Shown: positions 4,274 through 39,450 of the stretch, piece after piece
Numbering within the stretch: position 1 is the first letter of the stretch
Layout: the number at the start of each line of letters is the position of its first letter
NCBI GenBank assembly: GCA_913009825.1
Contig: CAJVYQ010000044.1
Location: 1-42,105, forward strand
Direction of reading: 5' to 3'
DNA length: 42,105 nucleotides
Source of the DNA: an uncultured Deferribacteres bacterium
GTDB taxonomy: Bacteria; Zhuqueibacterota; JdFR-76; DREG01
The notes under the pieces: generated by a model
Database searches by the model: none
What the model was told of the DNA's origin: nothing
What the model saw: the letters and a program-made list of their open reading frames with translations, nothing else
Program-made: the position numbers and the translations under genes

Positions 4274-5181
4274 TTGAACCAAAAGAAAAAGTACCGCCTG
4301 TTTATTTTTGATCTGGACGGCACGCTGGCAGACACGGCTGAAGATGTCCATTTCAGCATGAATCAACTGCGCCGGGAGTTGGGACTACCGCACATTTCGT
4401 TGGCAGAAGCAAAAAAATCCATCGGTCCCGGTTCTGACCGGTTTATAAAATTGCTCACACCGAATCCGGAACAGAATAATTTAAAAAAAATGGTAACTAT
4501 TCAGGTCGCCTGAGAGTGAACCCTCAGGCTAAGACATGAAAGCATCCTGAAGGATGCTATCGTAAATAGGACGCTTTAGCGCCCTTTCATTTCTTAGCCT
4601 TGTCGTTCACGGCAAGGCGAAAAAGATTGAAAGAAAACACCTGAATAGTTACAATAGTTTTTTTAAAACTTTCGTGACTTACTGTCTTTGTGGCAAAAGG
4701 AAACCAGGCTGAATAGTTACAAAAAATGATTAAAAAATTCCGGCAGATATATGCGGATCATTTAATGGATCAGACAAAATTATTTTCCGGCATTGAATCG
4801 GTATTAAAAACACTACACGATTCCGGTATAACAAAAATTGTTGTCACCAATAAGCCGGGAAAATATTCACGTAAAATTCTGGATGGGCTGGGTGTGTTGG
4901 ATTATTTTATTTCTGTTTTGGGTCCGGAAGATGTAACCAAACAAAAACCGGCGCCGGAACCGGTTTTGAAAGCGCTTGGATTAGCTCGGGTTAAACCGGA
5001 TGAGGCAATTATGATTGGCGATACGGTTTATGATATGGAATCCGCCAAAGCCGCAAACGTGGATGTGTGTGCGGTTGCTTATGGGTATACATCTGCTGAA
5101 GAACTAAACTCATTGAAACCAAATTATTTTATTCGTGAACCGAAAGAAATATTATATCTCATCGATGATTTTTTTGATTAA
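4274..5181 (+). pseudogene. HAD phosphatase split by a mobile element
   Basis: The gene encoded a HAD subfamily IA phosphatase of the phosphoglycolate phosphatase type. The first part (TTG 4274 to about 4492) has the nucleophile motif FDLDGTLADTAED. It then runs into the inserted element and stops at 4513 after six foreign residues. The second part (from 4729, re-openable at ATG 4726) carries motif II (VVTNK), motif III lysine (KQKPAPEP) and motif IV (MIGDTVYDME). Removing the element and one target copy joins ...NNLKKM to IKKFRQIY in frame and gives a 223-residue protein of normal length. The fragments separate the nucleophile from the other catalytic residues, so neither should be active alone. 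The insertion looks recent because no other lesion is visible. It would be the last gene of the NlpC-epimerase operon. Confidence 0.93.
4493..4720 (+). mobile_element. 228-base MITE-like element with 8-base target duplication
   Basis: Terminal inverted repeats GTAACTATTCAG (4493-4504) and CTGAATAGTTAC (4709-4720) are perfect over 12 bases. The insertion is flanked by direct copies of AAAAAATG (4485-4492 and 4721-4728), as expected for transposition with an 8-base duplication. A third end copy (4641-4652) lies inside. Its ACCTGAATAGTTAC (4639-4652) is a perfect 14-base match to the left end, so the element may be compound: a 160-base unit plus a tail. The interior is strongly folded: arms 4526-4542 with 4584-4600, a perfect AGCATCCT palindrome near 4541-4558, and a GCCTTG hairpin near 4598-4619. 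There is no transposase frame, so a source must act in trans. Confidence 0.92.
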
Positions 5182-5339
5182 TTAAATTTCCAATGTTTCT
5201 TTGGATCTATTTATCAAACAAGATTGTACCTATTCAGGCATACAAGATTTTGTTATTGAATACGTTAAGGAAAACTCCCTTTCATTGTTGTTCCCGGGAA
5301 AGTGGAAATCTATCAGTTTTTATTTTTATTGGAGGTTTT
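5182..5339. repeat. Intergenic repeat remnants before the crotonase gene
   Basis: A diverged end motif GTACCTATTCAG lies at 5226-5237, one base off the GTAACTATTCAG end. A short palindromic remnant around 5289-5310 (TTCCCGGGAAAG) resembles common dispersed intergenic palindromes. Neither has a partner end here. The ribosome site GGAGGT at 5331-5336 belongs to the next gene. Confidence 0.35.
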
Positions 5340-18412: not shown

Positions 18413-18424
18413 CTGAATAGTTAC
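18413..18424 (+). repeat. Solitary CTGAATAGTTAC element end
   Basis: An exact copy of the 12-base right end of the GTAACTATTCAG family. I find no matching left end within the preceding 400 bases, so this is either a remnant or the right end of a decayed element. Confidence 0.5.
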
Positions 18425-34875: not shown

Positions 34876-37122
34876 CTACTTGCGCAGAAAGAATGTCATC
34901 TTGGCCATAACGGTGCGATTATTCAAAATGTCTTCGCCGCCGCCGAAGAGATTTTCCTGGTTGAGAACAAGATAAAAATCACTGCCCGGCCGGTAATGAT
35001 AACGGAGAATTATATTTTCCGAATATCTCGCCTTGCCGCCAAGAAGCAGTTTGTCATCATAATATTGTAAAAATGCTTTGATGTAAAAATCGGGATTGAA
35101 AGAATAAATAATACGGGCAGAAGTGGCGATGGTGTTAAAATGTCCCTCCGGAAGCGTGACCTTATTGTAGTTAAACTGGATATTTGCTGTGAGCCGTTTG
35201 AAAGCCAGTATATCCATTGAAATAATACCGCCAACCCGGTTGCCTGTGTAATATTCGCCCACATTCAGGTTCATTCTCACACTGACGGCATGAGAACGGT
35301 TGGTGTTGTAACGAATCCTGATCTCTTTATTGGTATATCCCCGGATCGGAATTATAAATCCGTCCCGCACTGCCCAATTGTAATCGAGATAATCATATTC
35401 GCTGGTAAGGTTGATACCAAGCCGGGAGCTGTTTTCAAACCGGATGCTGAATTCGCCGTCAATTTTTCGGTTCAACATAAAATTTTGATGATTGGTCTGA
35501 TATTCTCCGTTCAACCCGAATTCAAATTGACGGATCGCTTTTGAAAAAGAAGGGCGGGGCGAATAGGATGCTTTACCCTGTGTGCGCCGGATATCGGTTC
35601 TACGGATGAATCCCATTTCCGGATTGAAATCTTTCTGAATATCCAGAATATTAGCGGAATACTTCCACAGATCGGATTCATAATTGAAGCCTGTATTTCC
35701 GGCAAAATTGTTACGGTTTGTTTCACCGGAAGAGAAGGTTCCTGCGCTGTTCAAAAAGAAGGAGAAGCGATTACTGACAGGGAAATTGGAATCAAACCCG
35801 AAAGACCGGTTATAGGAACCGTTACTTTGCCGTTTGTTCAATAACATGATGCCGGCAGATGAACGGGAAAAAAAATTACGTTTGAGTCGGAATACATTGA
35901 AATTAGTATTCGGAACGGTTCCGGGATTATAGCCGCCAATCGTTGTTTTTTCTGTCTGAAGGGACAACACTCCCAAAGTATATTTACCTACCTTTCCATT
36001 CAGTCGCCCGCCGCCAATAATTGGAAGAAGCTGGCCGGATTCCAGGCCGATTCTGCGGCTGTAAAATAACTGGATAGCTCCGGCATCCGGACGGAAACTG
36101 TGTCCGCCTGTTTGCCCAAAAGTAAATATTTCGGCGCCCTCTAAAAAAAATTCTCTTTTCTCCGGAAAGAACAGAGAAAAACGGGTTAAATTTATTCGTT
36201 CCTGATCGGATTCCACCTGGGCAAAATCGGTGTTGTAAGTAAGATCGGCAGTGAGGGTAGAGGTAAGATTGATTTTCATATCCAACCCGGCATCACCGGT
36301 TTTCTTCGTTTTGAAGTCCGTGTAGTTGTCATGCTGGATACCACCGCTGGTGAATGGTTTGAATTCGAATGTGCCGCCCATTTTCAAATTTTCAAAACCG
36401 TAAATAATTCCGGCTTCGGACATGCGGAAACGGCCGAACCAGCCGGCATCCCGGGGAATAAGCCGCCAGTAATCATCTTCGTTTTTACGCTGAATTCTGC
36501 GGACAAAATTAGCGCCCCATACGGTTTTGCTTCCCTCTTTGAACCGCAGAGTCTGCCAGGGAATAGCCATTTCCACAAACCAGCCGCGGTTATCGATGGA
36601 TGTTTTGCAGCTCCAGACACCGTCCCAATTTGAATTTTGGATTTTCCCCTCGTCGCTGATTGTGCCGTCCCGCCGCAAACCGAAAGGATTGGTGGTAAAA
36701 TAAAAGGCATTGCGAAAATCGTGAAAAGTATCGAAAATGATGCTGAAATAGTCGTCTTTATATAAAAATGCATCGCGCCGCATTTCAGTGGCGATGATTT
36801 TCTCCGGTTCGGAATCGAAACAACGTGCGCCGATGTACAGATTGTTTTTATCATAAATGATGGCCACTTCGGTTTTTTCAGTTGCAGGTTCTCCTTCTTT
36901 TGGTTCCCGCTGGAAAAAATTATTCTGAAATGATACCGATTGCCAGACCGGATCATCCAACTTACCATCAATTACGGGGGCCTTGCTGATTTGTACCGCT
37001 TCCATCTCTCTTTGAAACGGATCGGTTTTACCGGCAGCGCCATCCTGGGCAGAACCGCTGCCAACGTAGATAAACAGAAACGCAAAAAATAAGAATTGAG
37101 ATAATGAAGACTTCATGTTCAT
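34876..37122 (-). CDS. DUF5916 outer-membrane beta-barrel protein with CBM9-like domain (copy 2)
   Basis: Second family member in the window (748 residues). It has a signal peptide (QFLFFAFLFIYVGSGSAQ), a CBM9-like domain at about residues 45-245 (VIDGKLDDPVWQSV, YIGARCFDSEP, NSNWDGVWSCK, GWFVEMAIPWQTLRF) and a long DUF5916 barrel (FFPEKREFFLEGAEIFTFG, LFYSRRIGLESGQ). It ends in an aromatic-rich strand, MAKMTFFLRK, as barrel proteins often do. It differs too much from copy 1 to be a recent duplicate. Start ATG 37122 follows AGAAGGA with 11-base spacing; ATG 37116 is a close alternative. Family function is unknown. A mobile element sits 53 bases upstream of the start, in the promoter region. 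Confidence 0.88.
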   Translation of the reverse strand: MNMKSSLSQFLFFAFLFIYVGSGSAQDGAAGKTDPFQREMEAVQISKAPVIDGKLDDPVWQSVSFQNNFFQREPKEGEPATEKTEVAIIYDKNNLYIGARCFDSEPEKIIATEMRRDAFLYKDDYFSIIFDTFHDFRNAFYFTTNPFGLRRDGTISDEGKIQNSNWDGVWSCKTSIDNRGWFVEMAIPWQTLRFKEGSKTVWGANFVRRIQRKNEDDYWRLIPRDAGWFGRFRMSEAGIIYGFENLKMGGTFEFKPFTSGGIQHDNYTDFKTKKTGDAGLDMKINLTSTLTADLTYNTDFAQVESDQERINLTRFSLFFPEKREFFLEGAEIFTFGQTGGHSFRPDAGAIQLFYSRRIGLESGQLLPIIGGGRLNGKVGKYTLGVLSLQTEKTTIGGYNPGTVPNTNFNVFRLKRNFFSRSSAGIMLLNKRQSNGSYNRSFGFDSNFPVSNRFSFFLNSAGTFSSGETNRNNFAGNTGFNYESDLWKYSANILDIQKDFNPEMGFIRRTDIRRTQGKASYSPRPSFSKAIRQFEFGLNGEYQTNHQNFMLNRKIDGEFSIRFENSSRLGINLTSEYDYLDYNWAVRDGFIIPIRGYTNKEIRIRYNTNRSHAVSVRMNLNVGEYYTGNRVGGIISMDILAFKRLTANIQFNYNKVTLPEGHFNTIATSARIIYSFNPDFYIKAFLQYYDDKLLLGGKARYSENIILRYHYRPGSDFYLVLNQENLFGGGEDILNNRTVMAKMTFFLRK

Positions 37123-37175: not shown

Positions 37176-37515
37176 GTAACTATTCAGCTCACGTCTGTCT
37201 GACACAGGCAGAAAGCACACGAAACAATCGAAAGATCTCATCTAACTTTTTTCCTGTTTTTTTTTGAGTCTTTCGCGGGCTGCCTGAGTAGTGACAATAC
37301 CGTAACACTTTAGTTTTTTGAACAAATCCGCTTCCTTTGCGCTCTCTGCGTTTTAAAGCGCCTGTTTTTTTAACGCAGAGACGCGGAGGGCGCCGAGAAA
37401 TTGAAAAAATCGTCTGCCTGTTCAGCACGCGAATTACACGAAATCATACGAATAGGACAAAATAGTTAACGATTCGCGTTTATTAGCGCTATTCGCGGGC
37501 AACCTGAATAGTTAC
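37176..37515 (-). mobile_element. 340-base MITE-like element, GTAACTATTCAG family
   Basis: The ends GTAACTATTCAG (37176-37187) and CTGAATAGTTAC (37504-37515) are exact inverted repeats. The flanks CAAAAAAT (37168-37175) and CGAAAAAT (37516-37523) match in 7 of 8 bases, in line with the 8-base A-rich duplication at 4485-4728. The first 140 bases are an inverted copy of 1-143. The middle holds a CGCAGAG-type repeat (37332-37400) and the right part a GCGAATTACACG repeat, so the element is a mosaic. No transposase is encoded. It lies just upstream of the DUF5916 start and of the truncated antitoxin gene. Confidence 0.85.
37332..37400. repeat. CGCAGAG-type palindromic repeat inside the element
   Basis: A CTTTGCGCTCTCTGCGTT arm faces an AACGCAGAGACGCGGAGG arm. 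The same kind of sequence recurs at 39235-39273 and 41980-42105. It is a dispersed intergenic repeat, not coding. Confidence 0.65.
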
Positions 37516-39359: not shown

Positions 39360-39450
39360 TATATTTTTTATGAATAATTCAGGTTGGAACGGGATGTCAA
39401 ACTTCAGGGAACTATTCAGGATAAAAATATACAAACAGAAACGGAGGCAA

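What the first reader, a model, noticed from the sequence alone, without database searches (positions are those of the whole stretch)
4274..5181. Recent precise MITE insertion in a HAD phosphatase gene, with reading frame restorable
The 228-base element has 12-base inverted ends and an exact 8-base duplication AAAAAATG. Deleting the element plus one duplicate joins the two halves in frame into a complete 223-residue HAD protein with all four motifs. No other lesion is seen, so this is either a recent knockout or a reversible switch. It is direct evidence that the family moves with an 8-base duplication.
Basis: seen in the sequence. Interest (0 to 1): 0.7.

Follow-up and report, generated by a model that had tools for sequence, protein, structure and literature searches.

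The report
Composite IS66-type MITE splits HAD gene
A small non-autonomous jumping element, itself stitched together from pieces of two such elements and using IS66-type ends, has recently cut a phosphatase gene in two in an uncultured bacterium; this is a clear but essentially ordinary gene knockout, with an unusual element inside.

Summary
A 228-bp insert (4493-4720) with 12-bp inverted ends and an exact 8-bp duplication (AAAAAATG) splits a HAD phosphatase gene. Joining the flanks with one duplicate gives 223 codons that align gap-free across the junction to intact orthologs in relatives, some in the same gene order. The insert is not a simple MITE: it is a 160-bp MITE (4493-4652) plus a 68-bp tail resembling the end of another MITE, with a third terminal repeat inside. 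This composite moves as a unit: four full copies each have their own exact 8-bp duplication. The terminal 12-mer occurs 369 times in the genome. Single-ORF IS66 elements (ISBst12-like) in the same phylum have the same ends, one with an exact 8-bp duplication, as does the published ISDge4; no IS66 transposase was found in this draft genome. The 160-bp unit encloses a hairpin doublet that also occurs alone and beside a Y1 transposase gene. Of 41 insertions with exact duplications, only this one cuts the middle of a convincing gene. Recent knockout: well supported. Reversible switch: unsupported.

The parts
4274..4492 (+). 5' part of the split HAD phosphatase gene (TTG start; 73 codons up to and including the first target duplicate); the reading frame runs on to a stop at 4513 inside the element
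   Evidence: ORF 4274-4513; Pfam HAD_2 positions 2-64; DLDGTLADT motif, alignment with orthologs
4485..4492 (.). left copy of the 8-bp target duplication AAAAAATG
4493..4720 (.). composite mobile element, 228 bp, with 12-bp inverted ends GTAACTATTCAG; four complete copies in the genome, each with its own 8-bp duplication, and a fifth cut by a contig end
4493..4652 (.). 160-bp MITE unit with 14-bp inverted ends; many copies at 97-100% identity elsewhere, usually alone with an 8-bp duplication
   Evidence: folded as RNA -72.2 kcal/mol, z -10.2
4506..4619 (.). cargo: REPIN-like doublet (four hairpins with conserved linkers), present without IS66-type ends elsewhere in this genome and in relatives
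   Evidence: eight copies beside a Y1 transposase gene in L182
4641..4652 (-). internal third copy of the terminal repeat (right end of the 160-bp MITE)
4653..4720 (.). 68-bp tail, related to the right end of other MITEs (86% to C3:118832-118887, 77% to the outer end of the 586-bp element on C7)
4721..4728 (.). right copy of the 8-bp target duplication; its ATG (4726-4728) is the start of the downstream ORF
4729..5181 (+). 3' part of the split HAD gene (150 codons and stop), holding motifs II-IV but lacking the nucleophile motif
   Evidence: Pfam HAD_2 positions 61-178 for ORF 4726-5181; alignment

Best explanation
The insert is a non-autonomous element with IS66-type (ISBst12-like) ends that was mobilised in trans by an IS66-family DDE transposase recognising GTAACTATTCAG ends and joining them to the target with an 8-bp stagger. 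It inserted once into the A/T-rich stretch AAAAAATG of a HAD phosphatase gene and inactivated it: the nucleophile motif is separated from motifs II-IV. The element is composite. A 160-bp MITE carrying a REPIN-like hairpin doublet probably inserted beside or inside another MITE; the left end of the first and the right end of the second then moved together as a new 228-bp unit, which is now at five or more places. The host gene shows no other lesion, so the insertion is recent relative to gene decay. Shown: ends, duplication, composite structure, several copies with independent duplications, intact orthologs in relatives, IS66 elements with the same ends. Inferred: mobilisation in trans, the order of assembly of the composite, loss of function.
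For: Exact 8-bp duplication here and at 40 other pairs, mostly A/T-rich sites (80% against 57% for the genome). Four complete 228-bp copies, each with a different exact duplication: AAAAAATG, CAATTTAG, GAATAAAT, GAAAATTC. IS66 elements with GTAACTRTTCAG or GTAACTACTCAG ends in G053 (1525 bp, exact duplication ATTTTTTG), G057 and G039; in G048 seven further copies, plus one in G065, end exactly in this sequence with different flanks. Transposases confirmed as IS66 by NCBIfam NF033517 and Pfam PF03050. ISDge4 of the ISBst12 group has ends GTGACTACTCAGCA/GTAACTGCTCAGCA and an 8-bp repeat (PMC12898284). Joined HAD protein is gap-free against orthologs; gene order kept in G005 and G006.
Against: No IS66 transposase was found in this genome, though it is a 123-contig draft at about 96% completeness and multi-copy elements often fall out of such assemblies. 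The MITEs share only about 12-16 bp with the IS66 elements found, so the exact parent is not identified. The inner 160 bp are identical among the four composites while the tails vary at 4 sites (Fisher p = 0.007), which hints at assembly smoothing, conversion or more than one origin.
Confidence: 0.88

Rival explanations
1. Reversible switch: the element excises precisely often enough that the HAD gene is turned on and off within the population.
For: The reading frame is exactly restorable and the gene has no other lesion.
Against: An intact frame is expected for any recent insertion. No transposase was found in the genome. ISDge4 of the same group is reported as copy-and-paste (PMC12898284). 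Of 41 insertions only this one cuts the middle of a convincing gene, so there is no pattern of genic switches.
Confidence: 0.04
2. Assembly artefact: a repeat-graph or scaffolding error has put a multi-copy repeat between two halves of an intact gene.
For: Many contigs in this draft begin or end inside the same repeat, so the assembler struggled with it, and the identity of the inner 160 bp may be smoothed.
Against: A graph error would not create an exact 8-bp duplication flanking a complete element, of just the length that 40 other copies show; the four composites have different flanks and duplications.
Confidence: 0.05
3. Old, fixed insertion in a gene that is still used: the two halves are made as separate polypeptides (the second starting at the ATG within the duplicate) and act together.
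For: The downstream half has an in-frame ATG at 4726 and remains open for 151 codons.
Against: The upstream half ends after 79 codons inside the element; no clear ribosome-binding site precedes 4726 by eye; such splits are not a HAD arrangement known to me; the orthologs examined are uninterrupted.
Confidence: 0.03

Closest known systems
IS66 family, ISBst12 group (e.g. ISDge4 of Deinococcus geothermalis, PMC12898284)
   Same: End sequence of the form GT(A/G)ACT(A/G)(C/T)TCAG, 8-bp duplication, single transposase ORF in the autonomous relatives with matching ends
   Different: The element here has no transposase ORF, is 160/228 bp, shares only 12-16 bp with the IS66 elements found, and has a foreign hairpin cargo
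Bacterial MITEs such as MITECca01 (Cardinium, IS982-derived, 169 copies, PMC9769881) and MITEPsy1 (Pseudomonas syringae, PMC3189936)
   Same: Short, non-autonomous, inverted ends, many near-identical copies; MITECca01 is likewise mostly outside genes and only rarely inactivates them
   Different: The ends here are IS66-type with 8-bp duplications; MITEPsy1 makes 4-nt duplications and MITECca01 derives from IS982
REPINs with RAYT transposases (PMC3116915) and IS200/IS605-type palindromes
   Same: The cargo of the 160-bp MITE is a doublet of hairpin units in inverted orientation, with compensating changes between copies, and occurs beside a Y1 transposase gene (L182)
   Different: The whole 160/228-bp unit moves by IS66-type ends; the Y1 protein in L182 (156 aa) was not shown to be a RAYT or to move the doublet

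Membership tests
MITE (miniature inverted-repeat transposable element) | Short, without a transposase gene, terminal inverted repeats | tested here: met
   160/228 bp, 14/12-bp inverted ends, no transposase gene inside
MITE (miniature inverted-repeat transposable element) | Many copies, each flanked by a target duplication | tested here: met
MITE (miniature inverted-repeat transposable element) | Mobilised by the transposase of a parental IS | not testable with these tools
   Inferred from shared ends only; no transposase found in this genome
IS66 (ISBst12 group), as non-autonomous relative | Ends matching those of an IS66 element | tested here: met
   G053, G057, G039, G048, G065, G063 elements; ISDge4
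IS66 (ISBst12 group), as non-autonomous relative | 8-bp target duplication | tested here: met
   41 exact 8-bp, 0 extend to 9; the IS66 element of G053 has ATTTTTTG on both sides
IS66 (ISBst12 group), as internal-deletion derivative | Internal sequence derived from the parent IS | tested here: not met
   Only 12-16 bp at the ends are shared with the IS66 elements found; the interior is other repeat sequence. So it is filed as a MITE with IS66-type ends, not as a deletion derivative of a known IS66 element
REPIN (cargo only) | Two inverted hairpin units, dispersed in the genome, conserved loops and linkers | tested here: met
   15 of 28 predicted pairs have a both-sided change that keeps the pair; solo copies
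REPIN (cargo only) | Moved by a RAYT | tested here: inconclusive
   Eight copies flank a 156-aa Y1 transposase gene; the protein was not classified further

The most novel reading that the evidence does not exclude
In this genome an IS66-type transposition system treats any two inverted 12-bp ends within a few hundred bases as a transposon, so new mobile units are continually assembled from ends of different MITEs and from whatever lies between them, including REPIN-like palindromes of a second, unrelated transposition system; the 228-bp unit in the HAD gene is one such newly assembled unit.
Probability: 0.5. Interest if true: 0.5.

Novelty: new variant of a known kind. Interest (0 to 1): 0.36.

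Why it matters
The insertion itself is an ordinary gene knockout by a MITE. The value lies in the element: a MITE population with IS66-type (ISBst12-like) ends, for which my few searches of the paper library found no description, present with hundreds of ends in one genome. Its ends can be tied to an identifiable transposase group, and its members are visibly assembled from parts of each other and from another repeat family. That makes the origin of MITEs that are not internal deletions of an IS directly examinable.

Tried and rejected
The DruA/Tn5-like transposase between two GTAACTATTCAG copies on C7 (L007 4845-7151) was first considered as the autonomous element. Rejected as the likely parent: it has its own inverted repeats (CTTAACATGTCCCTC...) just inside, and the outer pair has no target duplication, so it appears to be a separate IS sitting within a MITE. 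The 2.16-kb pair on C9 (L005 6685-8847) holds ordinary genes and no transposase by eye. Search for the MITE in viral contigs: none. Rfam: none. Literature search for the 12-mer: none; IS66 with MITE and '8 bp': none. A scan of GTDB contigs with the HAD protein gave only distant homologs. Blast of MITE interiors against the IS66 elements: only the ends match.

Full report
Observation. The 228-bp insert at 4493-4720, its 12-bp inverted ends and the exact AAAAAATG duplication (4485-4492, 4721-4728) are in the sequence as described. Joining 4274-4492 to 4729-5181 gives 672 nt and 223 residues without a stop. In a MAFFT alignment with eight relatives' HAD proteins there is no gap at or near the junction (about 38-55% identity), and the HAD motifs are all kept. 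In two genomes of the same order (G005, G006) the uninterrupted gene lies between the same neighbours, the epimerase-like and enoyl-CoA hydratase genes; G004 shares the epimerase side, and G001 and G002 share the hydratase side. The locus is therefore an orthologous, otherwise intact gene, cut once.

The element is composite. A third copy of the terminal repeat lies inside at 4641-4652. Positions 4493-4652 are a 160-bp MITE with 14-bp inverted ends, found in many near-identical copies elsewhere in the genome. The remaining 68 bp (4653-4720) resemble the right ends of other MITEs: 86% to C3:118832-118887 and 77% to the outer end of the nested 586-bp element on C7. The 228-bp unit occurs complete at C44, C6, C16 and C79 with four different exact 8-bp duplications, and once more at a contig end on C11. 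It has thus moved as a unit. The simplest history is that a 160-bp MITE landed next to or in another MITE and that the left end of one and the right end of the other were then used together. No progenitor copy (AATAGTTT in front of the 160-bp unit) was seen in the 1.83 Mb examined. Among the four complete units the inner 160 bp are identical while the tails vary at four sites (Fisher p = 0.007). Since many contigs end inside this repeat, assembly smoothing is a real possibility and identity alone should not be used to date the spread.

The family. GTAACTATTCAG occurs 369 times in this 5.1-Mb draft, and its reversed control 0 times. In 1.83 Mb, 41 oriented pairs have exact 8-bp duplications (a few overlap because elements are nested or tandem), with lengths from 56 to 586 bp and several unrelated interiors. 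No repeat extends to 9 bp, and 0 of 1632 swapped flank pairs match. The targets are A/T-rich (80% against 57%), roughly RAAWWTTN.

The transposase. No IS66 gene was found in this genome (PF03050; NF033517 up to E = 10; an IS66 protein of the phylum). The same PF03050 search rings in 15 other genomes of the phylum. There, single-ORF IS66 elements carry these ends: G053, 1525 bp, GTAACTGTTCAG...CTGAATAGTTAC, exact duplication ATTTTTTG; G057, 1508 bp; G039, 1523 bp, GTAACTACTCAG at both ends; the last two lack a matching duplication. In G048 seven further copies and in G065 one end exactly at CTGAATAGTTAC (or its complement) with different flanks. NCBIfam and Pfam place the proteins in IS66. The published ISDge4 of the ISBst12 group has ends GTGACTACTCAGCA/GTAACTGCTCAGCA, an 8-bp repeat and a reported copy-and-paste mode (PMC12898284). 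The ends and duplication are therefore IS66-type; the exact parent is not identified, because the MITEs share only 12-16 bp with these elements.

The cargo. Positions 14-127 of the 160-bp MITE match repeats in other genomes without the IS66-type ends, including G005, which has no copy of the 12-mer at all. Solo copies at about 65-80% identity lie in this genome. An 11-sequence alignment gives four hairpins; 15 of 28 predicted pairs have a both-sided change that keeps the pair. Eight copies flank a 156-aa Y1 transposase gene in L182, seven of them in a tandem array of period 154. The 160-bp MITE is thus a REPIN-like palindrome, perhaps tied to a Y1 transposase, enclosed between IS66-type ends. 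Whether the Y1 protein is a RAYT was not tested.

Why this insertion stands out. With each element and one duplicate removed in the script, only the HAD insertion cuts the middle of a long ORF that is supported as a gene (73/223). Three other sites lie within the last three codons of an ORF, one near the start of an ORF, and two in ORFs of 163 and 127 aa not tested for being genes. By contrast 78% of random points fall inside an ORF of at least 150 aa. Genic insertions are strongly depleted, by selection or by the A/T-rich target preference, so this one is a rare and probably young or tolerated event.

Mechanism and verdict. Most likely an IS66-type transposase, acting in trans, placed this composite element into the HAD gene with an 8-bp stagger and inactivated it. 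A reversible switch is not supported: excised molecules could not be sought, no transposase was found, and an intact frame is expected for any recent insertion. The insertion is an ordinary knockout; the element is a somewhat unusual variant of a known kind.

Noticed in passing
window 37176-37515: Another member of the same superfamily (348-bp class, 340 bp here) with exact 12-bp ends and a 7-of-8 duplication (CAAAAAAT/CGAAAAAT), just upstream of the DUF5916 gene 34876-37122.
   Followed up: partly
window 5226-5237, 134-145, 18413-18424, 39408-39419: Lone copies of the terminal repeat (exact or one mismatch), probably relics or elements cut by the contig start; the one at 5226 lies between the HAD and hydratase genes.
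   Followed up: no
L007 4728-7213: A DruA-domain/Tn5-like (IS4-type) transposase element with its own inverted repeats of about 37 bp appears to sit inside a GTAACTATTCAG MITE.
   Followed up: partly
L016 8117-8392 (G000:C3:88117-88392): Two MITEs (92 and 160 bp) lie side by side, separated and flanked by three copies of the same 8-mer GTCTATTC, as if the second inserted exactly into the duplicate of the first, at the last codon of a P-type ATPase-like gene.
   Followed up: partly
L182 1330-2976: Array of 154-bp hairpin repeats (7 in tandem plus one) on both sides of a 156-aa Y1 transposase gene; same family as the MITE cargo.
   Followed up: partly
G000 contig ends (C1, C3, C8, C11, C22, C25, C46, C57, C77, C115): Many contigs begin or end inside the 160-bp MITE, so this repeat limits the assembly.
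   Followed up: no
G048 contigs C8, C45, C254, C587, C646, C681, C719: An IS66 element of the ISBst12 type is present in several copies at contig edges, i.e. probably active in that relative.
   Followed up: partly
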